Numbered from the stretch's first letter, positions 139-21,666 are shown. The stretch is 64,000 nt of DNA from Allocoleopsis franciscana PCC 7113 (GCF_000317515.1 NC_019738.1:6908001-6972000); one strand, 5' to 3'. Notes: generated by a model not told the origin, from the letters alone. Numbers and translations are program-made.

Positions 139-822
139 TCATGATTTAGCTAACAGTTCGGCTGCCACTAATCCTTTTTGAACCGCTAAAATAGCTGCTT
201 GGGTGCGATCGCGAACTTCCAGTTTTTGCAAGATAGCGTGGACATGTACCCGCACTGTACCTGTAGCAATGTGCAGCATTTCGGCAATTTCCTGATTCGT
301 CTTCCCTGCGGCAATCAGTGCCAATATTTCTTGTTCCCGATGAGTGAGGAGATTTTGTGACTCCCCAGCCGTCTTTATCTGTACAGGTAGATTGCCTGTC
401 ATTGCTGCACGAATTTCTGCCGTGACGGTTTGATCCCACCACGACGCCCCCGCCGCTACCGATCGCAGTGCTAAAATTAATAGCTCCGCTTCAATTCCTT
501 TAAGACAATATCCAGAAGCACCAGCTGCAATTAGCCGCTCAATTAGCTGCTTTTGAGAGTGAGAGGTTAGAACTAAAACGGGCATCTGTGAATGGTGCTG
601 TTTAATTTGACGACAAGCCTCAACACCCCCAACCCCCGGCAATCCCACATCCAACAGTACGACATCAGGTAGGTGCTGATTGGTCAGTTCTATAGCCGTT
701 TCGCCATCGACTGCCTCAGCGATAACTTCCAATCCGGGCTCTTTAGACAGCCGCATGGAGAGTCCTAAGCGGAACAGTTCGTCATCTTCTACTAACAAAA
801 TCCGCATTGGTGCTGGTTTCAT
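139..822 (-). CDS. NarL/FixJ-type response regulator
   Basis: A 227-residue DNA-binding response regulator. The N-terminal receiver domain (about residues 6-122) has the acidic pair at D13-D14 and the phospho-acceptor D58 in a VVLLDVGLPG context. A LuxR-type helix-turn-helix follows (about 160-222, with LTHREQEILALIAAGKTNQEIA). An alternative start is Met6. No intact kinase gene adjoins it. Directly upstream on the same strand lies a broken histidine-kinase tail (838-1000), so it was probably the second gene of a kinase-regulator operon. The intact kinase at 10357-11481 resembles that remnant and is a candidate partner by inference. The family call is firm; its target genes are unknown. Confidence 0.93.
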   Translation of the reverse strand: MKPAPMRILLVEDDELFRLGLSMRLSKEPGLEVIAEAVDGETAIELTNQHLPDVVLLDVGLPGVGGVEACRQIKQHHSQMPVLVLTSHSQKQLIERLIAAGASGYCLKGIEAELLILALRSVAAGASWWDQTVTAEIRAAMTGNLPVQIKTAGESQNLLTHREQEILALIAAGKTNQEIAEMLHIATGTVRVHVHAILQKLEVRDRTQAAILAVQKGLVAAELLAKS

Positions 823-1182: not shown

Positions 1183-1473
1183 ATGGTTTTGCAACCAAAA
1201 CTAGTTGCAGTAATATTGTTATCTCTATTTGGCTTCGTAATTATTTGGGTAACTATCTTTTTTGCCATTAAGATTGCTGGCAAAGTTTTCCCAAAAGTAA
1301 AGCGCTATTCCTTTAAGCGAGTTTCTTGTAAGGGTTGTCGATTTTTTACAAACAACCCTTATCTTAAGTGTACAGTACATCCCTCCACAGTTCTAACGAA
1401 ACAATCTCTTAATTGCCCTGATTATCAGTCTGATGAGCCGCGTGTAATTGAATTCCGAGAAGAAAAGAAATAA
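1183..1473 (+). CDS. Small membrane protein with four-cysteine domain
   Basis: A 96-residue protein with one hydrophobic segment (about residues 7-31) followed by a basic linker and a compact cysteine domain: C49-x2-C52-R-F-F, NNPYLKC63, VHP, then LNC78-x-DY. A clear paralogue lies at 17855-18283 with the same cysteines and the same RFF, NP-LKC, VHP and LNC-DY words. The CxxC plus two later cysteines suggests a metal or iron-sulfur site on one face of the membrane (inference). I do not recognise a named family. There is no strong ribosome-binding site, but ATG 1183 places the membrane segment at the N-terminus. Confidence 0.75.
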   Translation: MVLQPKLVAVILLSLFGFVIIWVTIFFAIKIAGKVFPKVKRYSFKRVSCKGCRFFTNNPYLKCTVHPSTVLTKQSLNCPDYQSDEPRVIEFREEKK

Positions 1474-3859: not shown

Positions 3860-4395
3860 CTTGAACTTCTTTAGATTTGCAAGGGTTTACAAGGTGTTTT
3901 TTTAGGCAATATCATACTGCCAATTTATTAATTTTAATTTTAATCCAGAAAGACTGAAATCAAGAAATTAAAGACCCATTAACTAAAAAATATATCTTAT
4001 AAAATGTATAAGCGTAAAGGTATAAATCAAACATCTGGTTTTAAAATATCTCAATATTTATCTCTGTAATTATATTCTTAAAAATAGACAAAAACCTAGT
4101 AATAAATTTTGGGATATATAAAAAATAAACAATCAGTCTATACCTCAAACAACACCTGTTTATATCACTTAGACTAAAAGTTTATTTCTTGATTTTTAAG
4201 GTTACAAATTTTTGTTTTGCTTATAATTAAAGGAATAATGATTCTCTGTCTGTGTAGTTCTACAAATTTTCAGTATTAGGGTGTATTTACTTTTAGTTAA
4301 AAACAACAAAAAATACCTTGAACAACAATCAAGGTAATAGCGAACGATTGTTGTGATTTTTGAATTTTAAATGCTTTGAAATTTGGAGAACAAAA
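3860..4395. other. AT-rich intergenic region
   Basis: About 535 bases of strongly AT-rich DNA between a minus-strand gene and the stress gene at 4396. I see no reading frame worth calling. The right end forms the leader of the downstream gene and holds the overlapping hairpins listed separately. Confidence 0.6.
4314..4354 (+). promoter_or_regulatory. Leader with two mutually exclusive hairpins
   Basis: taccttga (4314-4321) pairs perfectly with tcaaggta (4329-4336). acaacaatc (4322-4330) pairs perfectly with gattgttgt (4346-4354). The two stems share bases 4329-4330, and the second uses the loop of the first, so they cannot coexist. They lie 42 bases ahead of the ATG of the stress gene at 4396. 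A regulatory role is inferred. Confidence 0.4.
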
Positions 4396-4944
4396 ATGGT
4401 TACTACGCCTACAGCTTACAGTCCCAACCAACGTGCTATCGGAGTCTTTGAAAACTTTCAAAATGCAGAAAAGGCACTTCACGAGTTAGAAACTGCGGGG
4501 TTTGACATGAACAGAGTTTCTGTTATCGCGCAGGATACTCCCGCTAAAAGCGATATGGCAGGAGCCAACATACAGGATGAACAGATTGGAAATAAAGCTA
4601 ACGAAGGGGCAGCTACAGGAGCGATCGCGGGCGGGGCTTTAGGAAGTATAACTGGCTTACTCGCGGGCTTGGGTGAGCTAGCAATTCCTGGTATTAGTTT
4701 GCTCCTGTTAGCTGGAGAAGCCACGGCTGTTGCTTCTACCCTTGCTGGTGGCACGATGGGTGCAGCCGCAGGGGGTTTGAGTGGTATCCTAGTTGGTTTA
4801 GGAATTCCCAAAGAGCGAGCGAAGGTTTACAGCGATCGCGTACTTCGCGGCTATTACCTCCTGAGGGTTAATGGTACGCCAAATGAGATAGCTCGCGCCG
4901 AAACCATCTTACAAAATCGGGGGATTGAAGAGTGGGGCATCTAA
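4396..4944 (+). CDS. General stress protein 17M-like, glycine-zipper protein
   Basis: A 182-residue protein. The N-terminal domain (about 8-45: RAIGVFENFQNAEKALHELETAGFDMNRVSVI) matches the YflT/GspM-like general-stress domain. The centre (about 65-140) is a Gly/Ala-rich hydrophobic glycine zipper likely to sit in the membrane. The C-terminus (ERAKVYSDRVLRGYYLLRV-G) repeats the same fold signature. I chose ATG 4396, not the upstream in-frame ATG at 4360, because ggagaa precedes it at 4385-4390. A paralogous domain forms the C-terminal part of the protein at 9030-9944. A stress role is inferred from the family. Confidence 0.8.
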   Translation: MVTTPTAYSPNQRAIGVFENFQNAEKALHELETAGFDMNRVSVIAQDTPAKSDMAGANIQDEQIGNKANEGAATGAIAGGALGSITGLLAGLGELAIPGISLLLLAGEATAVASTLAGGTMGAAAGGLSGILVGLGIPKERAKVYSDRVLRGYYLLRVNGTPNEIARAETILQNRGIEEWGI

Positions 4945-6642: not shown

Positions 6643-6795
6643 ATTGGGTATCTAGCATCAGATATATATCAAAGACCTGCTAAAAAAATAGTGAAAATAT
6701 ATTGGAGAATATATTGTTTCTCCAGTAAGGCAGCGCTAGATTAACTGTTATCAGCAAGATTCAAGTCAGCCTAATCCAGTATTTCACTTGGAATT
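6643..6795. repeat. Structured intergenic repeat, copy 2
   Basis: The second copy of the element at 1494-1684. Conserved blocks are 6643-6671 and 6746-6788. The hairpin arms are 6704-6709 (ggagaa) and 6718-6723 (ttctcc), against gggaaa and tttccc in copy 1, that is two compensated pairs. The terminal block of copy 1 (ggagcctggggtaggaaagc) reappears only at about 7058-7086, so this copy seems interrupted by roughly 270 bases. It lies upstream of the GT4 gene at 7107. No reading frame runs through it. Confidence 0.6.
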
Positions 6796-7106
6796 ACCCA
6801 TTTGGAAAACACGGTTGGAGCGGAGGAACCATTTTTTGGGGCAAATCTTCTAACGTTATCTCTGTGAAATAAACAGATAACAAGAGAAGGACATCTCTCA
6901 GTCCTAGCCCGTCAGCTAACTCCGTAGGCATTGAGAGGAGACTGAAGAGTCAGCAGGTTAAAAAAATAGGCTACTCGTATCAGTTTCCCTGGCTGGTGTA
7001 TATCTCTTCGTTTTACCTACCCTTAACTTGCTAAAGACCAAAACTATCCGTTTATTCATGGAGTTTGGGGTAAGAAAACTAGCCATAAGGTGAAAATCAA
7101 CTCATC

Positions 7107-8384
7107 ATGTTTCTCAGACAAAAAAATCGCATTGCTTTAATTTCTGTTTGTGGTGACCCAGCTATAGAAATTGGCAAAGAAGAAGCTGGCGGACAGAATG
7201 TTTACGTGCGTGAAGTTGGGTTAGCTTTAGCACAGGCGGGCTGGCAAGTGGATATGTTCACTCGTCGTAGCAGTCTCGAACAAGCGGCTGTTGTTCAGCA
7301 TAGCCCAAATTGCCGAACGATTCGGTTAACGGCTGGTCCGGCAACGTTTATCAATCGAGATGAAGTCTACTCCTACCTACCCGAGTTTGTCTACTCATTC
7401 CTTGTATTCCAGCAGCGAGAAGGATTGAGATATTCCATCATTCATACGAATTACTGGTTGTCGTCCTGGGTAGGGATGGCACTGCGGAAGTATCAGCCTT
7501 TAATTCAAGTGCATACTTATCACTCGTTAGGGGCGGTGAAATACTCTACTATGAGTGACCTTCCCCCGATCGCATCCACGCGACTAGCCGTAGAAAAAGC
7601 GTGTTTGGAAACAGTGGATCGAGTTGTTGCCACCTCTCCTCAAGAAGCAGAACACATGCGGCAGTGGGTTTCTACAAAAGGAACAATTGAAATTGTTCCC
7701 TGTGGCACCGATATCGACAGGTTTGGTGGAATTCCCCAAAATGAGGCGCGGCAACAGTTAGGAATTGCACCGGATGCCAAGGTTGTGCTTTATGTCGGTC
7801 GCTTCGATCCGCGTAAAGGGATAGAAACGCTAGTGCGATCGATCGCGAAATCCAGTTTGCACGGTCAGGCTAATTTGCAGTTGATTATTGGAGGCGGCTT
7901 TCATCCAGGTCAAAGCGACGGGATAGAACTCGATCGCATCCAAGATATCGTCAACGAACTGGGACTGCAAAACATTACAACATTCCCAGGACAACTCGGC
8001 GATACCAACTTACACCTCTACTATGCAGCAGCTGATGTTTGTGTGATTCCCAGTCACTACGAACCCTTTGGTCTTGTTGCACTTGAAGCAATGGCTAGTG
8101 GAACTCCCGTAGTTGCCAGCAATATTGGGGGTTTAAAGTTTACTGTAGTTCCAGAAGTAACGGGTTTACTGGTACCTCCTAAAAATGAAGTCGCCTTTGC
8201 TCAAGCAATCGATCAAATTCTGGCTAATCCCGCTTGGGCTTTCCAACTCGGTCAAACAGGTCGGCAACGGGTAGAAATTGCCTTTAGCTGGTATAGCGTG
8301 GCATCGAGACTCGGCAGTCTTTACACACAACTCCTCGATCGAGCAGCATCGGTGTCTGGCAGCAAATCTCAGGTAGCCGCTTAA
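7107..8384 (+). CDS. GT4 glycosyltransferase (sucrose-phosphate-synthase-like fold)
   Basis: A 425-residue GT-B enzyme of family GT4. The N-terminal acceptor domain has the EEAGGQNVYVREV loop shared by sucrose-phosphate synthases and MshA-type enzymes. The C-terminal donor domain has VLYVGRFDPRKGIETL, then the E-x7-E motif in HYEPFGLVALEAMASGTPVV, which binds the nucleotide sugar. Length is typical for a single-domain GT4 enzyme; no phosphatase domain is fused. The exact donor and acceptor cannot be read from sequence. It stands alone, preceded by the structured repeat and followed by a GC-rich hairpin. Confidence 0.9.
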   Translation: MFLRQKNRIALISVCGDPAIEIGKEEAGGQNVYVREVGLALAQAGWQVDMFTRRSSLEQAAVVQHSPNCRTIRLTAGPATFINRDEVYSYLPEFVYSFLVFQQREGLRYSIIHTNYWLSSWVGMALRKYQPLIQVHTYHSLGAVKYSTMSDLPPIASTRLAVEKACLETVDRVVATSPQEAEHMRQWVSTKGTIEIVPCGTDIDRFGGIPQNEARQQLGIAPDAKVVLYVGRFDPRKGIETLVRSIAKSSLHGQANLQLIIGGGFHPGQSDGIELDRIQDIVNELGLQNITTFPGQLGDTNLHLYYAAADVCVIPSHYEPFGLVALEAMASGTPVVASNIGGLKFTVVPEVTGLLVPPKNEVAFAQAIDQILANPAWAFQLGQTGRQRVEIAFSWYSVASRLGSLYTQLLDRAASVSGSKSQVAA

Positions 8385-9029: not shown

Positions 9030-9944
9030 ATGAAATTTAAATTTTTTATTCTTATAAGTGCTGCTGTGGCTACTGTGGGATTACTTGAACCACTTCCAAA
9101 CGCTTTTGGCCTTAGCCTAGAATCCCAAACAAATATAAAAAATGTACAGCCTTTGCATGACGTGAGAAGCCTTAAGAAGTCTTTGGGTGAGTGGACTCAC
9201 AATCAAGAATTAGTAAAGCCAACTAAAAGTATTTCATCTCTTCCTGTAACAGTTGCAACGCCACCGACTCAGTCCAGTCAACCCAACTTTGCTAGGAAAA
9301 TGGCTCATTACATTAATGCTTTCGGCGCAGTTTTTCTTCTCTGTGTGCTCATCGGCTATCTCTTGGGAGAGCTTCGGTCTTTGTCTATAAAGTACCGTGC
9401 TATGCAGGTGACTGTTCGAGATATCTGTGTGATTGGTGTATTCCCTAGCCGTGAAGCAGCAGGACAAGCTCTCGACCAACTGGTATTTTCTGGCTTTTTC
9501 TTGGAAAAGGTTTTTTTGGTAGGTAAAAACTCAGCTTTCGATGAGCAATCTGTTGATGCCCAGATCATGAGCGCTCTTGTCAAGCAATCCTCTACAGGCT
9601 TAAGAAAAGGGTTAGCGATCGGCAAAGTGTCGGGAGGCTTGATTGGTTTATTGTTGGGATTAGGTATTTTGGCGCTGCTTGGTGTTGAGCAGATAGCACT
9701 GGCTCCTGCCGCTGGTTTTGCTCTTGTGTGCGGCGGTATTTGCACAGTAGTAGGCGGCGTCATTGGAGCTTTTACTGGTTTGAGAATAACCAAAAAGCAA
9801 GCTAAGAAATACAGTGAACGGGTCGCGCGTGGTGATTACTTGCTAATTGTCAATTGCACAAAGGATGAAATTAAGCAGGCCAAACGCATCCTTAACGCAC
9901 AAGCAATTTGCAACGGTTATCCCGAAAAAAAAGCAGCTCCATGA
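9030..9944 (+). CDS. Membrane protein with C-terminal general-stress domain
   Basis: A 304-residue protein in two parts. Residues 1-~110 parallel the preceding gene (signal-like start, GEWTHNQELV, SSQPNF, then a membrane helix at about 92-112). From about 130 on it carries the GspM-like domain of the protein at 4396: ICVIGVFPSREAAGQALDQL, a Gly-rich double hydrophobic zipper (about 195-250), and KKQAKKYSERVARGDYLLIV. It looks like a fusion of the small exported protein with a stress domain after tandem duplication. There are 43 bases between the two genes, so they are probably co-transcribed. Confidence 0.75.
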   Translation: MKFKFFILISAAVATVGLLEPLPNAFGLSLESQTNIKNVQPLHDVRSLKKSLGEWTHNQELVKPTKSISSLPVTVATPPTQSSQPNFARKMAHYINAFGAVFLLCVLIGYLLGELRSLSIKYRAMQVTVRDICVIGVFPSREAAGQALDQLVFSGFFLEKVFLVGKNSAFDEQSVDAQIMSALVKQSSTGLRKGLAIGKVSGGLIGLLLGLGILALLGVEQIALAPAAGFALVCGGICTVVGGVIGAFTGLRITKKQAKKYSERVARGDYLLIVNCTKDEIKQAKRILNAQAICNGYPEKKAAP

Positions 9945-10356: not shown

Positions 10357-11481
10357 TCAACTTAGTGTGTAAGCAGGGAGTTGGAAGCCAAACAGTGCGC
10401 CACTCGATGTCCGATTCTCTGCCCAAATTGTGCCACCATGAGCCTCAACGATTTGACGAGACAGGTATAATCCAAGTCCTGAGCCTTTAGCTTGGCGATC
10501 GCTCAATCCTTGATAAAAGCGCTCAAATAAGTTAGGGAGTTCTCCGGGAGTGATACCAGGGCCGCGATCAAGTACCAATACTTGTTGCTGTGTACCAGTA
10601 GACTCTAAAACAACTTCCACCTTACCACCACGAGGAGAATGGTTGATGCTGTTGATGATTAAGTTAGCAAAGACTCGCTGTAACTGTAATGCATCGCCAT
10701 CCACCCAGAGGGGATAGGGAAAATTGGATTGGCCGTAGTTGAGATAAACATAGACTCGGCGTGATGCCGCTAAATCCGTTAGGGTGGCAATCACTTCCTG
10801 AGCAATTTCGGCTAAATTAACAGGCGATCGCTGAAGTTGTAGCCCTTCTGTATCGTAGCGGTAAATATCCAGCACCGTCTCGACGAGTTGTAGAGTGGAA
10901 CGGTGAGAGCGAGTCATCATTTCTAGCACATTTTGCTGCGCTGATGTCACCTTGCCAAATTGACCATTTTGAAAGGATTTTAGGGTTTCAATTGCTCCTA
11001 GTAGTGGTGTTTTCAAGTCGTGGGTGAGAGTGGAAACAAAATCCTCACGAATTCGTGCAAGTTGTTCTTGAGCGCGTAATTGAGCTTGTTGTTGGGCAAT
11101 GGCTTCTTCGTAAAGGCGGTTGCGATCGCTCAACCAACCCGTTACGATTAGCGCTAATACTGCAATTAACCGATTTGCTAACGTTGATAAGTTATAGGGT
11201 TTAAAGCTGGGAACGAGCAAATTTAATAAGGTAAACACAGAGGCGGCTAGCGTTACTTGAAACGTTGCTTTTCGACTCAATCGAGAACTTGTTAACAAAA
11301 TTGGGCCGGTATAAAGGTAGCCAAACACGTAGGGAGAGGGCGTGGCATACTCCAAGGCAATCACTACAGCAATCGTTCCAGCAATCAGCCAGCAGGTGTT
11401 GTGATAGTTGAGTGCTAGTGCTTTTGCCTGCTTGTTTCTAATTCCTATGCACTTCCCAAGAACTGAAAACTGAGTTCGCAT
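10357..11481 (-). CDS. Membrane sensor histidine kinase
   Basis: A 374-residue kinase. The N-terminal part (about 25-120) has four hydrophobic segments, in the style of the KdpD-like DUF4118 membrane module. A short coiled linker follows (about 123-145), then a HisKA domain with THDLKTPL (phospho-His near 155) and a HATPase domain with NLIINSINHSP (N box), DRGPGI (G1) and GSGLGLYLS (G2). No HAMP or PAS domain is evident. It is divergent from kdpA with a 387-base gap, and no regulator gene adjoins it. Its C-terminus has a decayed relative beside the regulator at 139-822. Confidence 0.92.
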   Translation of the reverse strand: MRTQFSVLGKCIGIRNKQAKALALNYHNTCWLIAGTIAVVIALEYATPSPYVFGYLYTGPILLTSSRLSRKATFQVTLAASVFTLLNLLVPSFKPYNLSTLANRLIAVLALIVTGWLSDRNRLYEEAIAQQQAQLRAQEQLARIREDFVSTLTHDLKTPLLGAIETLKSFQNGQFGKVTSAQQNVLEMMTRSHRSTLQLVETVLDIYRYDTEGLQLQRSPVNLAEIAQEVIATLTDLAASRRVYVYLNYGQSNFPYPLWVDGDALQLQRVFANLIINSINHSPRGGKVEVVLESTGTQQQVLVLDRGPGITPGELPNLFERFYQGLSDRQAKGSGLGLYLSRQIVEAHGGTIWAENRTSSGALFGFQLPAYTLS

Positions 11482-11868
11482 TCTGGCAATTCCTCTTAAT
11501 TATAATGTTTTTAACTTCTAAATCTAAAGATAATTCACAGGAATAGTTAGGGTTTTATGTTGAGCTATAACAAGCGTTTAGTCGTTCTATATCTGTAAGT
11601 ATAGATACCCTACTTATACCTAGAATAATAGCGATGTATCAAATAATTGTAGATGTATTTTATAGCTACCAGTAGATTTACAGCTCTTGAATATCGCGCA
11701 ATCATAAGTTCATATCCCAATTCTATGTAATGCAGAGATTTCCAGAGTATTTTGGGAAACGCGAATACTTTTATTTAGCAAAAATACGAAATGAGTGGAT
11801 TTTATTAGTTTGTACGAAAAAAACTAGACAAAAACCAAAGAGAGTTTTATTAGGAGACTTGACTCTTC
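11482..11868. promoter_or_regulatory. Divergent kinase/kdpA intergenic region
   Basis: 387 bases between the minus-strand kinase and kdpA must hold both promoters. A ribosome-binding site taggag (11851-11856) precedes the kdpA ATG. I could not identify a convincing operator. An 83-residue frame across the right half overlaps the kdpA start and is judged spurious. Confidence 0.45.
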
Positions 11869-13557
11869 ATGTGGCAAGGATTTTTACAAATAGCGATAAC
11901 GCTGGTGATTTTAGTTGCGATCGTACCCTTCTTGGGGCGATACATGGCGCGTGTGTTCTTAGGAGAACGAACGCTACTTGACCCAGTAATGACCCCTGTA
12001 GAGGGCATTATTTACACCGCTACAGGTGTTCGGCATCGAGAAAATATGACAGGTTGGCAGTATGCGCGTGCAGTACTGTGGAGTAATCTCGCCATGTTTA
12101 TCTTGGTGTACTTAATCTTCATGTTTCAAGGATTTCTCCCCTTGAACCCTACAGGATTAGAGGCACCAAGTTGGGATTTAGCACTGCATACAGCGATTTC
12201 GTTTGTTACCAATACCAACCAACAGCATTACTCCGGTGAAACTACCTTCACGTATGCTAGTCAAATGCTAGCTCTGGGGTATTTAATGTTTACATCGGCA
12301 GCAACAGGGCTTGCAGTTGCGATTGCCTTTATTCGCGGTTTAACAGGTAGACCTCTGGGTAACTTTTACATAGATTTAACCCAGTCTATTACACGGATTT
12401 TGCTGCCTATCTCCATTGTGGGAGCAATAGCATTGCTTATCTTGGGAGTACCTGAAACCCTAGCAGGGCCAGAAATTGTAACTACCTTAGAAGGGGCACA
12501 ACAAGTTATTGCTAGAGGGCCAGTTGCCCACTTTGAAATCATCAAAGAATTGGGAGAAAACGGTGGCGGTTTCTTTGGCATCAACTCCGCCCACCCCTAT
12601 GAAAATCCCAACGGTTTGGCCAACCTCATAGAAACCGTAATTATGGTGTGCATTCCCGCCTCCTTAATTATCACTTACGGTATCTTTGCCGGGAACAAAA
12701 AGCAGGGATGGCTAATATTTTGGATGGTCTTCATCCTCTATGCAATCCTAATTACGATTAGCGCCATTGGCGAGTATCAAGGGAATCCCTTAGTTAACAA
12801 TATCTTGGGTAGCCAACAACCTAATTTAGAAGGGAAAGAAGTTCGATTTGGTTGGGCGTTGACCGCACTTTGGGCAGTAACAACCACAGGGACAATGTGC
12901 GGTGCTGTGAATGGAATGCACGATTCCCTTATGCCTCCGGGTGGCTTTTCCACACTGTTCAATATGTTCATCCAAATCGTTTGGGGAGGACAGGGAACGG
13001 GGACAGCTTACCTATTTATCTACCTAATTCTGACCGTATTTCTCACCGGTTTGATGGTCGGACGAACCCCCGAATTTTTAGGTCGCAAAATTGAAAAACG
13101 GGAAATCGTTTTGGCAAGCGTGATTCTACTCGTTCACCCCATTATTATCTTGATTCCCAGTGCCATTACCATCGCCTTTCCCGAAGCCCTTAGCGGCATC
13201 ACAAACCCTCTCTATCACGGCGTCTCTCAAGTCGTTTATGAATACGACTCAGCCGCCGCTAATAATGGTTCTGGTTTTGAAGGATTAGCGGATGGAACAT
13301 TGTGGTGGAACTTGAGTGCTAGTGTCAGTCTCTTAGCAGGACGCTATCTCCCAATTATTGCCCTGCTGCTGTTAGCAGATAGTATGTATCGCAAGCAACC
13401 CGTCCCCGAAACTACAGGTACACTTCGCACCGATACAGGTTTATTTACAGGCATTACGGCTGGAGTCATTTTGATTTTGGGCGCACTAACATTCTTCCCA
13501 GTTCTTGCCTTAGGGCCAATTGCTGAAGCCTTTTTAATTGGTGCTGGCGCTACTTAA
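11869..13557 (+). CDS. kdpA: Potassium-transporting ATPase subunit A
   Basis: The 562-residue K+-channel-like subunit of the KdpFABC pump, an inner-membrane protein with about ten helices. The four selectivity-filter loops are visible: [11 protein letters not shown] near 120, [15 protein letters not shown] near 232, [16 protein letters not shown] near 345 and NNGSGFEGL near 466. Length is normal for the family. The start is fixed by taggag at 11851-11856. It is followed by 196 bases containing a CTCTGCG repeat before kdpB. Confidence 0.98.
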
Positions 13558-13669
13558 AACTTGTAGTGTAAGAATCTTCCCCACTTAGGCAAAAGAAACA
13601 ACTCCGTAAACAAAAACCCGCACTCCCCCTATCACCTTCCTTTACATCAAAATCCCCTCAACCTCCACT

Positions 13670-13723
13670 CCAAAACCTCTGTGCAACTCTGCGCTAAACT
13701 CTGCGACCCTCTGCGTTAAAAAA
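13670..13723. repeat. CCTCTGCG...TCTGCGTTAAAAAA dispersed repeat
   Basis: Several CTCTGCG units in a row, ending in ctctgcgttaaaaaa. A second copy lies at 57474-57528 with the same start (tccaaaacctctg) and the same end. It sits in the kdpA-kdpB gap. It is a known style of cyanobacterial intergenic repeat. Confidence 0.7.
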
Positions 13724-13753
13724 TCCAACTCCGACATCACTCAATCAGACGAA

Positions 13754-15853
13754 ATGAACACCCAAAAACAGGACAGACTAGAAGCAAAGCCACCTAGAAA
13801 CCGTAGAAAAGGTGAACACAAACGACATCAACGAAAAGTTAATACAAAAGGACTTTACAAAAGAGCCTTCCGCGATGCCTTCGTCAAACTCAACCCCCGC
13901 GTAATGCTAAAAAACCCAGTCATGTTTGTTGTCTGGGTCGGCACAATTATCACCTTTCTCCTAACAATTGAACCCACCTTATTTGGTCTCGTACCTGGAG
14001 AAAATCAGCGTTTCTTCAACGGGTTAGTAACACTCATTTTGTTGTTCACTATTTTGTTTGCCAACTTTGCGGAAGCGGTGGCCGAAGGACGAGGTAAAGC
14101 ACAGGCAGATTCATTACGTTCCACCAAATCAGAGACTACTGCCCGCAAACTCCTGCCTAATGGTTCAACCCAAGAAATCAGTTCCACTGAACTGCACAAG
14201 GGCGACCAAATTAAAGTGATTGCTGGGGACATTATTCCCGCCGATGGGGAAGTGATTCAGGGTGTTGCGTCGGTGGATGAGTCGGCAATTACCGGGGAAT
14301 CTGCACCCGTCCTCAAAGAACCGGGAAGTGATGTGGCTAGTTCCGTTACGGGAGGGACGCGCATTCTCTCCGATGAACTGATTATTAGGGTTACGGCTGA
14401 ACCCGGTAAAGGATTCCTCGATCGCATGATTGCCCTGGTTGAAGGTGCGGAACGGACGAAGACACCCAACGAGATTGCCCTCACCGTCTTACTCGCGGTT
14501 CTTACTCTCGTCTTTTTGATTGTTGTTGCGACAATTCCCCCGATCGCAGCGTATGTCGGTAGTCCTGTAGGCGTTGTCACCTTAATTGCCTTGTTGGTGG
14601 CACTGATTCCCACAACAATAGGCGGATTGCTAAGTGCGATCGGGATTGCCGGGATGGATCGGGTTGCCCAGTTTAACGTCATCGCCACCTCTGGACGGGC
14701 AGTTGAGGCTTGTGGCGACGTGAACACCTTGGTATTGGACAAGACGGGCACAATTACTCTAGGTAATCGCTTAGCAGAAGAATTCATTCCTGTCAATAGT
14801 CACTCTTCAGCAGAAATGGCTCGCGTGGCATTAGCCGCGAGTCTATTTGACGAGACGCCAGAAGGTAAGTCAATCGTCAAGTTGGCAGAAAAGATGGGGG
14901 CAAGGGTTGATTTTGACCGCAGCGCGGCTGAAGGTGTTGAGTTTACCGCCAAAACTCGCATGAGTGGCACCAATTTACCCGATGGGGATGAGGTGCGTAA
15001 AGGTGCAGTGGATGCAATTAAAGGCTTCGTGCGTTCTCGTGGTGGACGTTTAACAGCTGACCTTGATGAAGCTTATCACCGAGTTTCGCGTTTAGGTGGT
15101 ACTCCCCTGGCGCTTTGTAAAGATGGCGACATTTACGGCGTTATTTACCTCAAAGATATTGTCAAACCTGGCATTCGGGAACGATTCGATCAGTTGCGAC
15201 GGATGGGTGTCCGCACGGTGATGTTAACGGGTGATAACCGGATTACTGCCGAAGTGATTGCGGCTGAAGCTGGGGTAGATGATTTCATCGCCGAAGCTAC
15301 ACCCGAAGACAAAATTGCTGTGATTCAACGGGAACAAGCAGAAGGTAAATTAGTTGCCATGACGGGCGATGGTACTAACGATGCCCCTGCTTTAGCCCAA
15401 GCAAATGTCGGTTTAGCGATGAATTCGGGTACGCAAGCCGCAAAAGAAGCAGCAAACATGGTGGATTTGGATTCCGACCCCACCAAGCTGATTGATTTAG
15501 TCACGATTGGTAAGCAATTACTGATTACTCGTGGGGCATTAACTACATTTTCCATTGCTAACGATATCGCTAAATATTTCGCGATTATTCCAGCAATGTT
15601 TGCTCCAGTTGCTATTCTTAATATCTTGGGATTAGCCAGTCCACAATCGGCTATTCTGTCAGCCCTCATCTATAACGCATTAATTATTCCGGCACTGATT
15701 CCATTAGCACTTAGAGGGGTTAAGTTTAAACCTGTAAGCGCCAATCGGTTGTTGTTGGAAAATATCCTGATTTATGGCTTAGGAGGGGTGATTGCGCCGT
15801 TTGTCGGCATCAAAATTATTGACGTAATTATTTCAGTGATTGGATTGGCTTAG
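13754..15853 (+). CDS. kdpB: Potassium-transporting P-type ATPase subunit B
   Basis: The 699-residue catalytic P-type ATPase subunit of the Kdp pump. It has the actuator motif TGES (about 180), the phosphorylation motif DKTGTIT (about 329), LTGDN (near 493) and [10 protein letters not shown] (near 538), with membrane helices at about 55-100, 235-300 and 600-699. An unusually basic N-terminal tail (residues 1-45, many Lys/Arg) precedes the first helix. It lies between kdpA and the small KdpF/G-like gene and is transcribed the same way. Confidence 0.98.
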
Positions 15854-15889
15854 AAACGAAACACTTCAGAAATAAGTAGGAGTAAAAAG

Positions 15890-16159
15890 ATGAAGCGAGT
15901 TGATGAATTGAGAGAAATACTACCGAGAGATTGGAGTGAAGTAGGCGAAATTTTGGGCGAACAGTGGAGACGAAATCCTTTGCCGATTCAGCTCTTTCTC
16001 TTACTGTGCTTGAACCTACTGATTGCTCCATCGGTGGATGCAGCTACGGGAGCAGAAATTACTCGTAAGGCAGCTTATGCACTGGGAATTTTGGGCATTG
16101 TAGTAGTCGGGCTTGGCGTTTACTTATTCGTCGTGATTTTTCAACCGGAGCGGTTTTGA
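15890..16159 (+). CDS. KdpF/KdpG-like small Kdp subunit
   Basis: An 89-residue protein between kdpB and kdpC. A soluble start (1-30) leads to one hydrophobic segment (about 31-50, ending in VDAAT) and a second (about 62-84) ending in YLFVVIFQPERF, which resembles the whole of KdpF with its terminal PE-F motif. Cyanobacterial kdp operons are reported to carry a gene called kdpG here, sometimes with kdpF. This protein looks like a KdpG-type N-terminal part plus a KdpF-type helix. Its role is presumably to stabilise the KdpABC complex. RBS-like taggag lies upstream. Confidence 0.75.
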   Translation: MKRVDELREILPRDWSEVGEILGEQWRRNPLPIQLFLLLCLNLLIAPSVDAATGAEITRKAAYALGILGIVVVGLGVYLFVVIFQPERF

Positions 16160-16232
16160 AAATTCAAAATCCCTGTTGTCGCAACTTTTCGCAACTTTGA
16201 AAATTTCAGGGAAATACATAAGAGATTAAGTC

Positions 16233-16916
16233 ATGGTTAGAGAATTGATTACTGGTATTCGTTCTACCCTAGTACTTTGGGTTTTGACAGCACTAATTTA
16301 TCCTTTTTTGATGGTTGGGATAGGTCAAGCCTTCTTCCCCAATCAAGCAAATGGTAGTTTGATTAGAAATGCTCAAGGACAAATTGTAGGTTCAGCCTTA
16401 ATTGGTCAACCGTTCTCCTCAGAACGCTACTTTTGGAGTCGTCCCAGTACGACTAATTACAGCAGCTTCTCTCCCGAAGAGTATGACCCAAAAAATCTAG
16501 AAAATTTAGCACAAAGAACGGGTGTATCGGGTGCTAGCAACCTCGCGCCTAGTAATACATCACTTCTGCTCCAACCCTGGTATGAAACACCAGCAAATAA
16601 AGATATGCTCGAACGGTATCAATCACCCGATAATCCAGATTTAATAAATTTAGTTCAGGAGAGAGCAAACACACTCAAACAGGCAGGGATTGAGCCAACG
16701 GCTGATTTAGTTTATACCTCTGGTTCTAGCTTAGACCCGCATATTAGCGTTGAGGCAGCATTGGCACAAATTCAACGAATATCCAAAGTGAGAGGACTTG
16801 ACCCCAATCAAGTTGAACTTCTTATTAATCGATATACAGATGGTAGATTTCTCGGCATCTTTGGAGAACCAGGAGTCAATGTTTTAAAGCTGAATTTAGC
16901 GCTAGATAGTCCGTAA
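16233..16916 (+). CDS. kdpC: Potassium-transporting ATPase subunit C
   Basis: The 227-residue KdpC subunit. It has one N-terminal membrane helix (about 12-34), then GSALIGQPF, FWSRPS, a SGSSLDPHIS motif near 165 and VNVLKLNL at the end, all typical. A linker of about 60 residues in the middle makes it a little longer than the E. coli protein, as is usual in cyanobacteria. It completes the pump set kdpA-kdpB-kdpF/G-kdpC, and a possible terminator hairpin follows at once. Confidence 0.97.
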   Translation: MVRELITGIRSTLVLWVLTALIYPFLMVGIGQAFFPNQANGSLIRNAQGQIVGSALIGQPFSSERYFWSRPSTTNYSSFSPEEYDPKNLENLAQRTGVSGASNLAPSNTSLLLQPWYETPANKDMLERYQSPDNPDLINLVQERANTLKQAGIEPTADLVYTSGSSLDPHISVEAALAQIQRISKVRGLDPNQVELLINRYTDGRFLGIFGEPGVNVLKLNLALDSP

Positions 16917-16923
16917 ATTATCA

Positions 16924-16943
16924 GGCACGGTTCTTACCGTGTC
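16924..16943 (+). terminator. Hairpin after kdpC
   Basis: ggcacggt (16924-16931), loop tctt, then accgtgtc (16936-16943) gives an 8-bp stem with one G-U pair. It is not followed by a T-run, so termination may be partial and the downstream regulatory genes could still be read through. Confidence 0.4.
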
Positions 16944-17056
16944 CCTAAAAAACTAATGTTCCGCGATCGCCCAAATTTGATCAAGCGCAGCGTTGTGTAA
17001 AGAAAAATCTAATGCACCGACACTTAACCCCAACACTTAAACAGAAGGAGGCTCGG

Positions 17057-17725
17057 ATGATGCCTAATGCCCGAATCTTGATTGTGGATGACGAGAAAAA
17101 TATCCGGCTGACGATCGCTCAATCGTTAGACCCTTTAGGATATGAAGTTATGACGGCTCTCAATGGTGAGGATGCACTCAAACAGTTACAACTCGAGGAG
17201 TATGACCTAATTCTATTAGACCTGAGAATGCCGGGAATCGATGGTTTGGAGGTGCTAAAACGTGCTGTTGAGATGCATCCAGATATCCAAATCGTCATTC
17301 TTTCAGCGCATGGTACGGTTGATAATGCCGTTGAAGCGATGAAACTGGGTGCAGTAGACTTTATACAAAAGCCTTTTACTCCCCAAGAACTTCGAGGTAT
17401 CGTTTACCAGGTTCTAGAACACGATTCCCTCAACACTCAAGAGAGTTCTTCTTATCAAGGCGCAATGAAGATAGCGAAACACTGCGCCCGCAAGCGACAA
17501 TTTGATAGAGCGATCGCGCACGTCAAACAGGCGATTGGCTGCGATCCATCGCGAGCAGAAGCATTTAATCTTTTAGGGGAATTGCAAGAAATAGAAGGCG
17601 ATCGCATCGAGGCGTTGAAGAATTACCGAGTGGCAACCGACCTCGATCCCACCTACAAACCCGCGCAAAATAACCTCACGCGAGCCACGCGCTCGCCTAA
17701 AAGCCGTCCTCCCTTAATTTTCTAA
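17057..17725 (+). CDS. Response regulator with C-terminal TPR
   Basis: A 222-residue protein. The receiver domain (about 5-122) has the acidic pair D11-D12, the phospho-acceptor D55 (LILLDLRMPG) and the signature Lys in FIQKPF. The C-terminal part (about 140-215) has TPR-like helices (AEAFNLLGELQEIEGDRIEALKNY; YKPAQNNL) and no DNA-binding domain. It therefore probably signals by protein contact. I chose ATG 17057 because gaaggagg lies at 17044-17051; an in-frame ATG at 17012 has no such site. A copy missing exactly 450 bases lies at 20190-20405. It sits between kdpC and the kinase at 18343. Confidence 0.88.
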   Translation: MMPNARILIVDDEKNIRLTIAQSLDPLGYEVMTALNGEDALKQLQLEEYDLILLDLRMPGIDGLEVLKRAVEMHPDIQIVILSAHGTVDNAVEAMKLGAVDFIQKPFTPQELRGIVYQVLEHDSLNTQESSSYQGAMKIAKHCARKRQFDRAIAHVKQAIGCDPSRAEAFNLLGELQEIEGDRIEALKNYRVATDLDPTYKPAQNNLTRATRSPKSRPPLIF

Positions 17726-17854
17726 TCCCATTTCACTTTATAGGCGCTACAGGTAGTTTGAGGATGAGTTTTTGGTATTAGGTTTTCAAAGATTGCCCTA
17801 ACTTATAAAACTTACTCCCTATCGAAGAAGGCTGACCGATTGCTAAGGAAAGAA

Positions 17855-18283
17855 ATGAATAGTTTAGAGCCTTTAAACCTCTATGGTCTAGATGGTGAAT
17901 TTTTGAATCAATCCAGTGCGAAAGAGGTTAAGCTGGTTAAAGCTGGTTCAGAGGCAACACAATCATCCTTTGAGATTCAAAACGATTCATCAGAATTAAT
18001 GCCTCTTTTTTATCTTTTTATTTTACTGCTGATCGTAATTTTTGTTGAAAGAATTGGTGGCAAATTTTTTCGCAAAACTACCAAAGTAAAGACTAATGCT
18101 CAATTAAAACCCCTCCCTTGTGAAAGTTGTCGCTTTTTTATCGATAATCCTCATCTAAAGTGTGCTGTCCATCCGGCTAAAGCCTTAACACCCCTCGCTT
18201 TAAATTGCCAGGATTATCACCCTGATAGTATCGCTTTCCCAAAAAATAAAGCCCGATTTACAAGCTCTAAAGTAGATGAATAA
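17855..18283 (+). CDS. Membrane protein with four-cysteine domain, second copy
   Basis: A 142-residue paralogue of the protein at 1183-1473. An extra ~45-residue N-terminal segment is followed by one membrane helix (about 47-66: LMPLFYLFILLLIVIFV) and the same cysteine domain: CESCRFF, NPHLKC, VHP, LNC-DY. I chose ATG 17855 with aaggaa at 17845-17850 over a TTG 15 bases upstream. It lies between a Kdp-linked response regulator and a histidine kinase, so a redox- or metal-sensing accessory role in that signalling set is conceivable (inference). Confidence 0.75.
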   Translation: MNSLEPLNLYGLDGEFLNQSSAKEVKLVKAGSEATQSSFEIQNDSSELMPLFYLFILLLIVIFVERIGGKFFRKTTKVKTNAQLKPLPCESCRFFIDNPHLKCAVHPAKALTPLALNCQDYHPDSIAFPKNKARFTSSKVDE

Positions 18284-18342
18284 AAAGAGATAATTTTTTA
18301 GATACGGCCTCGTGCGAGATAAAAAATTTAACTGAAGGGGCA

Positions 18343-20181
18343 ATGAAACTGAGAACAAAAATTTTAGCTGGCTACGGTGTTGCCCTCACCTTAGTGATTC
18401 TGGTTTGCGGCTGGGGTATTATTAACATTCGCCGCTTAGGCAGAGCCAGTGAAGCCATTCTGCGGGAAAACTACCGCAGCATTCTTGCGGCTGAAAATAT
18501 GATCGATGCTATTGAGCGGCAAGATAGCGCCACGTTGTTGGTTTTGCTAGGGAATGAAGAGCAAGGAACCGAGCAGTTTAGTGCCAATGAAGTGTTGTTT
18601 TTGCAGTGGTTAGGTCGCGCGAAGGACAATATCACCATTCCTGGAGAGAAAGAAGTCCTCCTCAACCTGGAAAAAAACTATAAAGACTATCTGCTCACGT
18701 TTTCCCAATTGCGAAGACAGCAACTGCGCCAGACTCCAGTTTCTACCGATTACTACTACGACACACTACTGCCTGCCTTTGAGTCGGTGCGCCAGACGAG
18801 TGTTGAGTTGCGAGAGTTAAACCAAAAAACAATGGTGCTCGCTTCACAACGCACTCAAGCGCTTTCCCATCAGGCAATTGGGTCAATGGCTGTTACTGGG
18901 GGAGCAGCAGCCGGTTTGGGTTTAGGATTTAGCTTACTGCTTTCGACGCGCTTGGTTCGACCCCTTAAGGAAATGACTCGCGCTACCGAACGAATTGCCG
19001 AAGGTGATTATGATATCGCCATCACCGTGAAATCCGATGATGAATTGGGTCTTTTGGCGCAAGAAATTACGACCATGAGCCAAAATCTCAAGGTCTTCCA
19101 CGAGCTAAATGTAGGTCAGGTTATTGCCGAAAAACAACGCAGTGAATCGATTATCCGTAGCATCAGTGATGGATTGGTTGTTGTGGATGCGGAGTTTGAA
19201 ATTATTGCGATTAATCCTATCGCTGCTGCCATTTTGAATACCACTGCCGAACAGGCTAAGGGAAAGCATTTTCTCAGTGTTTTTAATCATCAACAACTTT
19301 ATGAATACCTAAACATAACTGCCCAGACGGGAACGCCGCCCCAGTTAAATGAAAACCAATCTATCCTCTCAAAACAGACGGAAAACCAGGCGCAGTATTA
19401 CAAATTTGCTATTACTCCTGTAACGACAGAAGAAGGCACGATGCTTGGTGTTGTCCTCTTATTGCAGGATGTCACCAAACTCAAGGAATTAGACACTCTT
19501 AAAAGTGAGTTTGTAGCGACGGCATCCCACGAACTGCGAACCCCCCTAACGGGCATGGCGATGAGTCTTAACCTCCTGTTGGAAACTGCCCAACAGAAAC
19601 TATCTAATCGCGAACAAGAGCTGCTACACGCAGCCGTAGAAGATGTGGAACGCTTACGGACTTTGGTGAATGACCTTCTCGATCTTTCCAAAATTGAGTC
19701 CGGTCGAATTGAACTGGAGTTTATTGCTGTAGAGGTTGAGCTATTAATCGAGAAAGCTATTTCAATTTTGAGTGTACAGGCACAGGAGAAACAGATTGAA
19801 CTAACGCCCAGCATACCAACAGATATTGAGCCAGTGAAAGCAGACCCAAACAAAATCATCTGGGTGCTGATTAATTTAATTGCTAATGCTCTGCGTTACA
19901 CCGAGGCAGGGGGACATATCCAGGTGAGTGCTCAGCAGAAAGATGATTGGGTTTACCTATCAGTTGCCGATAATGGCCTTGGTATTCCTTGGGAGTATCA
20001 AGCAAAAATTTTCGATAAGTTTGTCCAGGTAAAAACTGATAAAGATGTGGGTGGGAGTGGTTTGGGGTTAGCGATTTGTAAGGAAATTGTCAAAGCACAT
20101 AGTGGGACAATTTGGGTTGATTCCGCCCCAGGCGAAGGCAGTACATTTACGTTTACGCTGCCTGTTGTTAATGAGCGGTGA
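18343..20181 (+). CDS. HAMP-PAS sensor histidine kinase
   Basis: A 612-residue membrane kinase. It has a helix at about 7-29, an extracytoplasmic four-helix-type sensor (30-180), a second helix at about 184-205, a HAMP domain (206-258), a PAS domain (about 268-375, IISDGLVVVDAEFEIIAINP-like), HisKA with ASHELRTPL (His near 394) and HATPase with NLIANALRYTE, DNGLGIP and GGSGLGLAI. It lies between the receiver-TPR regulator and the reduced KdpD, replacing the kinase half missing from KdpD. A Kdp role is inferred from position only. Confidence 0.93.
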   Translation: MKLRTKILAGYGVALTLVILVCGWGIINIRRLGRASEAILRENYRSILAAENMIDAIERQDSATLLVLLGNEEQGTEQFSANEVLFLQWLGRAKDNITIPGEKEVLLNLEKNYKDYLLTFSQLRRQQLRQTPVSTDYYYDTLLPAFESVRQTSVELRELNQKTMVLASQRTQALSHQAIGSMAVTGGAAAGLGLGFSLLLSTRLVRPLKEMTRATERIAEGDYDIAITVKSDDELGLLAQEITTMSQNLKVFHELNVGQVIAEKQRSESIIRSISDGLVVVDAEFEIIAINPIAAAILNTTAEQAKGKHFLSVFNHQQLYEYLNITAQTGTPPQLNENQSILSKQTENQAQYYKFAITPVTTEEGTMLGVVLLLQDVTKLKELDTLKSEFVATASHELRTPLTGMAMSLNLLLETAQQKLSNREQELLHAAVEDVERLRTLVNDLLDLSKIESGRIELEFIAVEVELLIEKAISILSVQAQEKQIELTPSIPTDIEPVKADPNKIIWVLINLIANALRYTEAGGHIQVSAQQKDDWVYLSVADNGLGIPWEYQAKIFDKFVQVKTDKDVGGSGLGLAICKEIVKAHSGTIWVDSAPGEGSTFTFTLPVVNER

Positions 20182-20189
20182 AAGGAACG

Positions 20190-20405
20190 ATGTCTAAGGC
20201 CAGAATCTTGATTGTGGATGATGAGAAAAATATCCGGCTGACGATCGCTCAATTAGGGGAATTGCAGGAAATAGAAGGTGATCGCGTCGAGGCGTTGAAG
20301 AATTACCGAGTGGCAACCGACCTCGATCCCACCTACAAACCCGCGCAAAATAACCTCACGCGAGCTACGCGATCGCATAAAAGTCGTCCTCCCTTAATTT
20401 TCTAA
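20190..20405 (+). pseudogene. Internally deleted copy of the response regulator
   Basis: A 71-codon frame that is an almost exact copy of the regulator at 17057-17725 with 450 bases (150 codons) cut out in frame. The first ~20 codons (ARILIVDDEKNIRLTIAQ) join directly to LGELQEIEGDRVEALKNY and the shared C-terminus. The duplicated 3' flank extends past the stop. The phospho-Asp and the rest of the receiver are gone. The frame stays open and has a ribosome-binding site (gaaagga), so a small TPR peptide may still be made. It overlaps neither neighbour and starts 8 bases after the kinase. Confidence 0.8.
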
Positions 20406-20511
20406 TCCCATTTCACTTTATAGCCGCTATAGGGAGTTTTCAGAATAGTATTTACAGTAAAAGAAACACATCAAAAAATTTACAATTCTATATCCAAAGT
20501 TCCCTATTCCC

Positions 20512-21666
20512 ATGATTCATCAAAACGAGATAGCCAACCAATTGAATAGTACTGAACCTAATGACACCCTTTCTCGCCGCCGTCGAGGTAAGCACAAAAT
20601 GTTTATTGGCATGGCTCCCGGCGTAGGCAAAACCTATCGAATGCTGGAAGAAGCCCATCGACTTAAGGAAGAAGGCATTGATGTGGTGATTGGCTTACTA
20701 GAAACTCATGGGCGTGAAGAAACAGCAGACAAAGCCGTTGGATTAGAGATGATGCCTAAAAAGCTAATTGTTCACGGCGGCGTTACTTTGGGAGAAATGG
20801 ATACAGACGCTATTTTGGAGCGCCAACCTCAATTAGTCCTCGTCGATGAACTTGCACACACCAATATACCCGGTTCGTTGCGAGAAAAGCGCTACCAGGA
20901 TGTTGAGGTTATTTTGGAAACTGGTATTGATGTTTATTCCACAGTTAACATTCAGCACTTAGAGAGTCTCAATGACTTAGTAGCAAAGATTACTGGGGTG
21001 GTGGTGCGTGAGCGAATTCCTGATCGCATTCTTGATGAAGCCACAGAAGTTGTAGTCGTAGATGTCACACCCGAAACCCTACAAGAACGGTTAATCGAAG
21101 GCAAAATTTATGCTCCAGAAAAAATTGAACAATCCCTACAAAACTTTTTTCAGAAGCGTCATTTAGTTGCGTTACGGGAGTTAGCTTTACGAGAAGTTGC
21201 TGACAATATAGAAGAATCAGCAGAGAAAAACTCTACTCCAGCAGCTCAGTTTTGTAATGTTCACGAGCGAGTTTTGGTTTGTATTTCCACTTACCCTAAT
21301 TCAGCTCAGTTGCTCAGAAGAGGAGCAAGATTAGCTACTGTCATGCGATCACGCCTGTATGCGTTATTTGTCGATCACCCAGAACGCTTCCTCACTAGGG
21401 ATGAAAGCCTTTATATTGAAACCTGCAAAAATTTTTGTCTGGAGTTTGGTGGCGAGTTTATCTGCGTAAAATCTGCAAATGTGGCTGATGCAATCGCAGC
21501 GACAGCACGACAGTACCACATTACTCAAGTCATTCTAGGACAGTCTCATAAATCTCGTTGGGAAATACTCTGGAGGGGTTCTCTTGTTCAGAAATTAGTA
21601 CGATATCTCAAAGATGTAGATTTGCATATTATTGCGACCGAAAAAAAAGAATTTAAGCGCTTTTGA
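20512..21666 (+). CDS. kdpD: Truncated KdpD (KdpD + USP domains only)
   Basis: A 384-residue cytosolic protein equivalent to only the N-terminal part of E. coli KdpD. The KdpD domain (about 25-232) has a Walker A motif GMAPGVGKT at 33-41 and VLVDELAHTN (Walker B-like). A universal-stress-protein-like domain follows (about 245-380, with LGQSHKSRWE). The membrane module, HisKA and ATPase domains are absent, as is typical of cyanobacterial KdpD. ATG 20512 follows a duplicated spacer. Signalling probably needs a separate kinase, for which the genes at 18343 and 10357 are the nearby candidates. Confidence 0.93.
   Translation: MIHQNEIANQLNSTEPNDTLSRRRRGKHKMFIGMAPGVGKTYRMLEEAHRLKEEGIDVVIGLLETHGREETADKAVGLEMMPKKLIVHGGVTLGEMDTDAILERQPQLVLVDELAHTNIPGSLREKRYQDVEVILETGIDVYSTVNIQHLESLNDLVAKITGVVVRERIPDRILDEATEVVVVDVTPETLQERLIEGKIYAPEKIEQSLQNFFQKRHLVALRELALREVADNIEESAEKNSTPAAQFCNVHERVLVCISTYPNSAQLLRRGARLATVMRSRLYALFVDHPERFLTRDESLYIETCKNFCLEFGGEFICVKSANVADAIAATARQYHITQVILGQSHKSRWEILWRGSLVQKLVRYLKDVDLHIIATEKKEFKRF

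What the first reader, a model, noticed from the sequence alone, without database searches (positions are those of the whole stretch)
10357..21666. Kdp potassium system with its sensor split into separate parts
KdpD here ends after its KdpD and USP domains. Inserted between kdpC and kdpD are a receiver-TPR regulator without a DNA-binding domain, a cysteine-domain membrane protein and a full HAMP-PAS kinase; another kinase with a KdpD-like membrane module faces away from kdpA. Truncated KdpD is known in cyanobacteria and its missing kinase partner is an open question. This locus supplies physical candidates, and the signal may pass by protein contact rather than direct DNA binding.
Basis: partly seen in the sequence, partly recalled or inferred. 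Interest (0 to 1): 0.75.

Follow-up and report, generated by a model that had tools for sequence, protein, structure and literature searches.

The report
Kdp operon with second potassium sensor
This cyanobacterial potassium-pump operon has the ordinary split regulators of its group plus an extra sensor kinase and a regulator that cannot bind DNA; across cyanobacteria that extra pair sits almost only beside potassium-uptake genes (Kdp or Trk), so it is probably an undescribed potassium-control switch and not the lost half of KdpD.

Summary
The genes are largely as described, but four corrections change the reading. (1) The short KdpD has no missing half: it keeps the atypical serine-kinase residues that switch off KdpB, and published work shows short KdpD is c-di-AMP-controlled. 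(2) The divergent kinase is standard in cyanobacteria: divergent from kdpA in 58 of 73 surveyed loci, followed by a NarL-type DNA-binding regulator in 54 of 58. (3) Also missed: a deleted second copy of the receiver-TPR gene at 20190-20405. (4) The inserted HAMP-PAS kinase and receiver-TPR regulator are unlikely to be KdpD's other half. In a scan of 388 cyanobacterial genomes made without reference to kdp, 15 of 16 receiver-TPR relatives lie at potassium-uptake loci: 9 at kdp, 6 directly upstream of trkA-trkA-trkH. Six kdp-operon versions without the kinase have lost the receiver's acidic pocket. So this is a known split Kdp regulator plus an accessory, apparently undescribed potassium-linked two-component pair whose output is probably protein contact. 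Its target and effect are unproven.

The parts
139..822 (-). NarL-type response regulator (receiver + LuxR HTH), the usual partner of the divergent kinase, displaced here by about 9.5 kb
   Evidence: 74% identical to the regulator next to the divergent kinase in L058; Response_reg + GerE; adjacent to that kinase in 54 of 58 loci
10357..11481 (-). Divergent membrane histidine kinase (H154), conserved across cyanobacterial kdp loci
   Evidence: HisKA + HATPase; homologue divergent from kdpA in 58 of 73 loci
11869..13557 (+). kdpA
   Evidence: TIGR00680, 858 bits
13754..15853 (+). kdpB; E182 and S183 correspond to E. coli E161 and S162 (serine-kinase target)
   Evidence: TIGR01497; alignment to E. 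coli
15890..16159 (+). kdpF-type small subunit (the 'KdpG' position)
   Evidence: PF09604
16233..16916 (+). kdpC
   Evidence: TIGR00681
17057..17725 (+). Receiver-TPR response regulator, D55, no DNA-binding domain (intact copy, probably the duplicate)
   Evidence: Response_reg + TPR; AF2 model; numbering
17840..18283 (+). Small membrane ORF with a C-x2-C-RFF...C...C motif; membership in the system doubtful
   Evidence: No Pfam hit; paralogues in this genome; absent from other kdp loci
18343..20181 (+). HAMP-PAS histidine kinase (H396), partner of the receiver-TPR regulator
   Evidence: HAMP, PAS, HisKA, HATPase_c; pair conserved in order kinase then receiver-TPR elsewhere
20190..20405 (+). Remnant of a second receiver-TPR gene with a 450-bp in-frame internal deletion (D55 lost)
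20512..21666 (+). Short kdpD (KdpD + Usp domains), atypical serine kinase by homology
   Evidence: PF02702 318 bits, Usp; G39-K40-T41, D112, E113, R193 conserved

Best explanation
Two layers of regulation meet at one Kdp pump. Layer 1 is the ordinary cyanobacterial split system: short KdpD acts as a soluble, c-di-AMP-stimulated serine kinase that phosphorylates KdpB S183 and stops the pump when potassium is high, and the divergent membrane kinase (10357) with its NarL-type regulator (139-822) switches kdp transcription. Layer 2 is an accessory two-component pair, the HAMP-PAS kinase (18343) and the receiver-TPR regulator (17057), that belongs to potassium uptake in general: relatives sit at kdp or directly upstream of trkA-trkA-trkH. 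The regulator has no DNA-binding domain, so its output is most likely protein contact through the TPR helices and conserved tail, tuning the neighbouring uptake system; KdpD is the likeliest contact here and the TrkA-type gating proteins at trk loci. Shown: gene and domain content, catalytic residues, recurrent linkage to potassium loci. Inferred: phosphotransfer from H396 to D55, the contact partner, the direction of the effect, and (from homologues) the roles of KdpD and the divergent pair.
For: Layer 1: serine-kinase residues conserved in 101/101 KdpDs and the target Ser in 72/72 KdpBs; diadenylate cyclase present; short KdpD stimulated by c-di-AMP (PMC11018627) and cyanobacterial KdpD binds it (PMC5897029); divergent kinase in 58/73 kdpA loci with NarL regulator in 54/58; divergent regulator required for kdp expression in D. 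radiodurans (PMC5716572). Layer 2: in a search made without reference to kdp, 15 of 16 receiver-TPR genes lie at kdp (9) or trkA-trkA-trkH (6) loci; two more trk cases and a receiver-TPR/kdpD pair in named genomes; at least two separate kdp associations in the kinase tree; orphan receiver-TPRs in kdp operons lose the receiver pocket but keep TPRs and tail; no HTH in the AF2 model.
Against: No binding, phosphotransfer or expression data. The pair is rare (15 of 388 genomes), is absent from three same-family kdp loci, is reduced to a tail fossil in another (L174), and its own second regulator copy in the window is deleted, so it is dispensable. One genome copy (L143) is not at a potassium locus. 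Receiver-TPR protein could act on something encoded elsewhere.
Confidence: 0.6

Rival explanations
1. The inserted or divergent kinase is the physically separate second half of KdpD: it docks on short KdpD, rebuilds an E. coli-like sensor and signals potassium through it.
For: Physical linkage of two kinases to kdpD; in Deinococcus the separate kinase has been described as the C-terminal half of KdpD (PMC5716572); kinase-regulator pair and kdpD stay adjacent without kdpABC in L072, L080, L088, L105.
Against: Neither kinase carries the DUF4118 or GAF parts of KdpD; relatives of the inserted kinase occur at trk operons without kdpD beside them; short KdpD works alone as a serine kinase in vitro (PMC11018627).
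Confidence: 0.12
2. The inserted pair is a phosphate sink or cross-talk module: the receiver-TPR protein competes for phosphate with the NarL regulator and so damps kdp transcription, with no direct contact to transport proteins.
For: Two kinases and two receivers at one locus; a lone receiver precedes the receiver-TPR gene in L037.
Against: At the trk loci no NarL regulator or divergent kinase was found beside the pair. Orphan receiver-TPRs in kdp operons have lost the metal-binding acids and so probably cannot act as phosphate sinks there.
Confidence: 0.13
3. The insert is a decaying or chance passenger: a kinase/receiver-TPR pair of unrelated function that landed between kdpC and kdpD and is being lost.
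For: Deleted second copy in the window, tail fossil in L174, absence in close relatives.
Against: Recurrent association with two unrelated potassium-uptake systems in distant lineages; kinase and intact receiver keep all catalytic residues.
Confidence: 0.15

Closest known systems
Short KdpD (KdpD/Usp) atypical serine kinase, e.g. Deinococcus geothermalis KdpD (PMC11018627)
   Same: KdpD + Usp domains only, downstream of the pump genes, serine-kinase residues and KdpB target Ser conserved
   Different: Adenine-coordinating W39 is Tyr here; c-di-AMP response of this protein untested
Separate kinase/regulator pair of Deinococcus radiodurans and Anabaena kdp (PMC5716572; cited there and in PMC11018627)
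   Same: Kinase divergent from the kdp operon, with its own DNA-binding regulator
   Different: In this genome the regulator is NarL-type and has been moved about 9.5 kb from its kinase; identity of the Anabaena genes was not checked here
E. coli KdpD/KdpE
   Same: KdpD domain, Usp domain, kdpABC operon
   Different: KdpD kinase part absent; no OmpR-type KdpE at the locus; regulator is NarL-type
Response regulators with TPR output (REC-TPR)
   Same: Receiver followed by TPR helices, probable protein-contact output
   Different: No described potassium-linked example was found in the papers searched; this family has its own conserved tail (RATxxxxRP) and potassium-locus linkage

Membership tests
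Short KdpD atypical serine kinase | KdpD domain with Usp, no membrane, GAF or kinase part | tested here: met
   PF02702 and Usp only, 384 aa
Short KdpD atypical serine kinase | Walker A GKT, Walker B D/E, adenine pair W39/R190, KdpB S162 | tested here: met
   GKT, D, E, R and KdpB E/S conserved; W39 replaced by Tyr, an aromatic
Short KdpD atypical serine kinase | NCBIfam NF038185 'KdpD-like non-kinase' curated score | tested here: not met
   456 bits against a cut-off of 550, over almost the full model; not filed under that model
Short KdpD atypical serine kinase | c-di-AMP-stimulated phosphorylation of KdpB | not testable with these tools
   Cyclase gene present; needs biochemistry
Split KdpD kinase half (TM/GAF/DHp-CA) | KdpD membrane module (DUF4118) and GAF before the kinase core | tested here: not met
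   No hit at E=5 for the 10357 kinase; hhalign probability 0.3% to E. coli membrane segment
KdpE (OmpR-type regulator) | Winged-helix OmpR-type DNA-binding domain | tested here: not met
   Regulator at 139-822 has a LuxR-type HTH; receiver-TPR has none
Cyanobacterial divergent kinase/NarL pair of kdp | Kinase divergent from kdpA, NarL regulator directly behind it | tested here: inconclusive
   Kinase placed as usual; regulator present in the window but 9.5 kb away
Potassium-linked kinase/receiver-TPR pair (proposed here) | Kinase and receiver-TPR genes adjacent at a potassium-uptake locus | tested here: met
   15 of 16 receiver-TPR genes at kdp or trk loci
Potassium-linked kinase/receiver-TPR pair (proposed here) | Phosphotransfer from kinase to receiver and an effect on potassium uptake | not testable with these tools
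   Needs biochemistry and genetics

The most novel reading that the evidence does not exclude
An undescribed two-component module controls potassium uptake in cyanobacteria without touching DNA: the receiver-TPR protein docks on the soluble gatekeepers of two unrelated uptake systems (KdpD/KdpB at kdp, TrkA at trk), and in one lineage it has become a phosphorylation-independent part of the Kdp operon after losing its receiver pocket.
Probability: 0.3. Interest if true: 0.75.

Novelty: new variant of a known kind. Interest (0 to 1): 0.52.

Why it matters
It moves the question from 'who is KdpD's lost half' (largely answered by the serine-kinase work) to a testable one: a kinase with a non-DNA-binding regulator tied to both Kdp and Trk would be an extra, fast layer of potassium control alongside c-di-AMP. 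The natural contrast between intact receivers (with the kinase) and pocket-less receivers (without it) in kdp operons offers a direct test of whether phosphorylation or simple contact carries the output.

Tried and rejected
- 'The kinase at 10357 is KdpD's own transmitter half': no DUF4118, no GAF, no profile match; kept only as a rival.
- 'The Cys protein is part of the system': not found in other kdp loci; a small local family.
- 'The receiver-TPR gene arose at kdp': the second genome copy and the trk copies give no support for this.
- A first, wide C-terminal alignment had no stretch conserved enough for the genome scan; a narrower one worked.
- A regular-expression test for the S. aureus c-di-AMP motif matched none of the sequences tried; the motif was recalled from memory, so this is not used either way.
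- Promoter and terminator scans gave about as many hits as shuffles and are not used.

Full report
WHAT IS THERE. The window lies in a 7.97-Mb cyanobacterial genome.

WHAT WAS MISSED. First, eight bases after the kinase there is a second receiver-TPR gene (20190-20405) from which 450 bp have been deleted in frame. Its arms are 60/66 and 143/150 identical to the intact copy, and the similarity runs on past the stop codon. In the trk loci and in the second genome copy the order is kinase then receiver-TPR, closely spaced, so the remnant probably sits in the ancestral place and the intact copy upstream is the duplicate. This is an inference; L037 has its receiver-TPR gene upstream of the kinase. 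Second, the NarL-type regulator that normally follows the divergent kinase is in this window at 139-822 (-), 74% identical to its counterpart in L058. About 9.5 kb of other genes now separate it from the kinase.

HOW COMMON EACH PART IS. KdpD was found in 176 of 388 sampled genomes of the class. Of 100 neighbourhoods analysed (window included), 96 have a KdpD ORF of at most 450 residues: the truncation is the rule here. Of 73 loci with kdpA and at least 1.5 kb upstream, 58 have a homologue of the 10357 kinase divergent from kdpA, and 54 of those have the NarL regulator close behind it. Three kdp loci from the window's own family show this plain layout with no insert between kdpC and kdpD (L171-L173).

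WHY KDPD NEEDS NO SECOND HALF. The KdpD domain is an atypical serine kinase that phosphorylates KdpB S162; the short form of D. geothermalis is stimulated by c-di-AMP, and the authors list cyanobacteria among the phyla with mainly the short form (PMC11018627). S. elongatus KdpD binds c-di-AMP (PMC5897029). In 101 aligned KdpDs (window and E. coli included) the GKT, D109, E110 and R190 positions are invariant; W39 is mostly Tyr or Phe. KdpB keeps E161 and S162 in 72 of 72. The genome has a diadenylate cyclase. A kinase and regulator divergent from a short-kdpD operon are known in D. radiodurans, where the regulator is required for kdp expression (PMC5716572).

THE INSERTED PAIR. A search of the same 388 genomes with the receiver-TPR protein, made without reference to kdp, found 17 matches at E <= 1e-30 in 15 genomes; one is a lone receiver beside another hit (L037), leaving 16 receiver-TPR genes. 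Nine are at kdp loci. Six lie immediately upstream of TrkA-TrkA-TrkH, each preceded by a relative of the window's kinase. One is the window genome's own second copy, with its kinase, near ftsZ. A scan of named genomes added Mastigocoleus testarum and a Xenococcaceae genome (trk), a Pleurocapsa genome (pair 1.8 kb from a sodium/proton-type antiporter with a Usp domain), and Coleofasciculus sp. LEGE 07092, where the receiver-TPR gene stands directly before kdpD. The record matching that last genome (G395) has no detectable kdpA. In L174, a same-family genome, only about the last two dozen codons of a receiver-TPR gene survive between kdpC and kdpD. Well-supported branches of the kinase tree require at least two changes between kdp and trk linkage.

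INTACT AND DEGENERATE RECEIVERS. In all 12 aligned receiver-TPRs that have the kinase beside them, and in L154, the receiver pocket is complete. In the six kdp-operon receiver-TPRs without the kinase (L032, L036, L076, L086, L099, L124) the two metal-binding Asp residues are His or Asn, the switch Ser is Cys or Ala, and seven residues are inserted before the Lys position. They form one clade with full support. They keep the TPR part and the tail, which suggests that the TPR part carries the function and that in this lineage it no longer depends on phosphorylation (inference).

MECHANISM. Most likely the divergent kinase and NarL regulator set kdp transcription, KdpD shuts the pump by phosphorylating KdpB when c-di-AMP is high, and the inserted kinase phosphorylates the receiver-TPR protein at D55, which then acts by contact on the uptake machinery. 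KdpD is the likeliest contact here because the receiver-TPR gene stays beside kdpD even in a genome without a detectable pump; at trk loci the TrkA proteins are the obvious candidates. The AF2 model (pLDDT 88.8) shows a receiver followed by five TPR-type helices and a short tail, with no HTH; PDB matches are to receivers and receiver-containing regulators.

LIMITS. There are no expression, binding or enzymatic data. The survey used a strict threshold and scored only a few candidates per genome, so counts are lower bounds. The comparison of the 10357 kinase with KdpD's membrane part used a single E. coli sequence and has limited power. Papers of subscription journals, including the work on the Anabaena L-31 regulator, could not be read.

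Noticed in passing
window 6785-6945 (+): c-di-AMP (ydaO) riboswitch upstream of a GT4 glycosyltransferase gene (7107-8384), inside the block that separates the divergent kinase from its NarL regulator; a possible second c-di-AMP/osmotic link at the same place.
   Followed up: no
L154/L176 (Coleofasciculus sp. LEGE 07092, G395) and L056 (G143): Near-complete genomes with kdpD but no detectable kdpA, so short KdpD may have a target other than the Kdp pump, or be a relic.
   Followed up: partly
L072, L080, L088, L105: NarL regulator, divergent kinase and kdpD stay together while kdpABC is absent from the site and kdpA lies elsewhere in those genomes; anmK follows kdpD as in the window.
   Followed up: partly
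L144 6752-7927 and 8103-8861 (own genome): A second copy of the divergent kinase and NarL regulator pair (61% and 63% identical) away from kdp.
   Followed up: no
window 1183-1473 (+) and 17840-18283 (+): Two paralogues of a small membrane protein with a C-x2-C-RFF...NP-x-LKC motif, one beside the NarL regulator and one inside the kdp insert; no Pfam family.
   Followed up: partly
L127, L128, L129: A few cyanobacteria have long KdpD ORFs of 754-893 residues, in L128 and L129 next to a divergent-type kinase and regulator.
   Followed up: no
window 4360-4944 (+) and 9030-9944 (+): A YflT-domain stress-protein ORF (4360) and an ORF with a weak YflT match (9030) in the same block, next to a Crp-type regulator at 2302-2880.
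   Followed up: no
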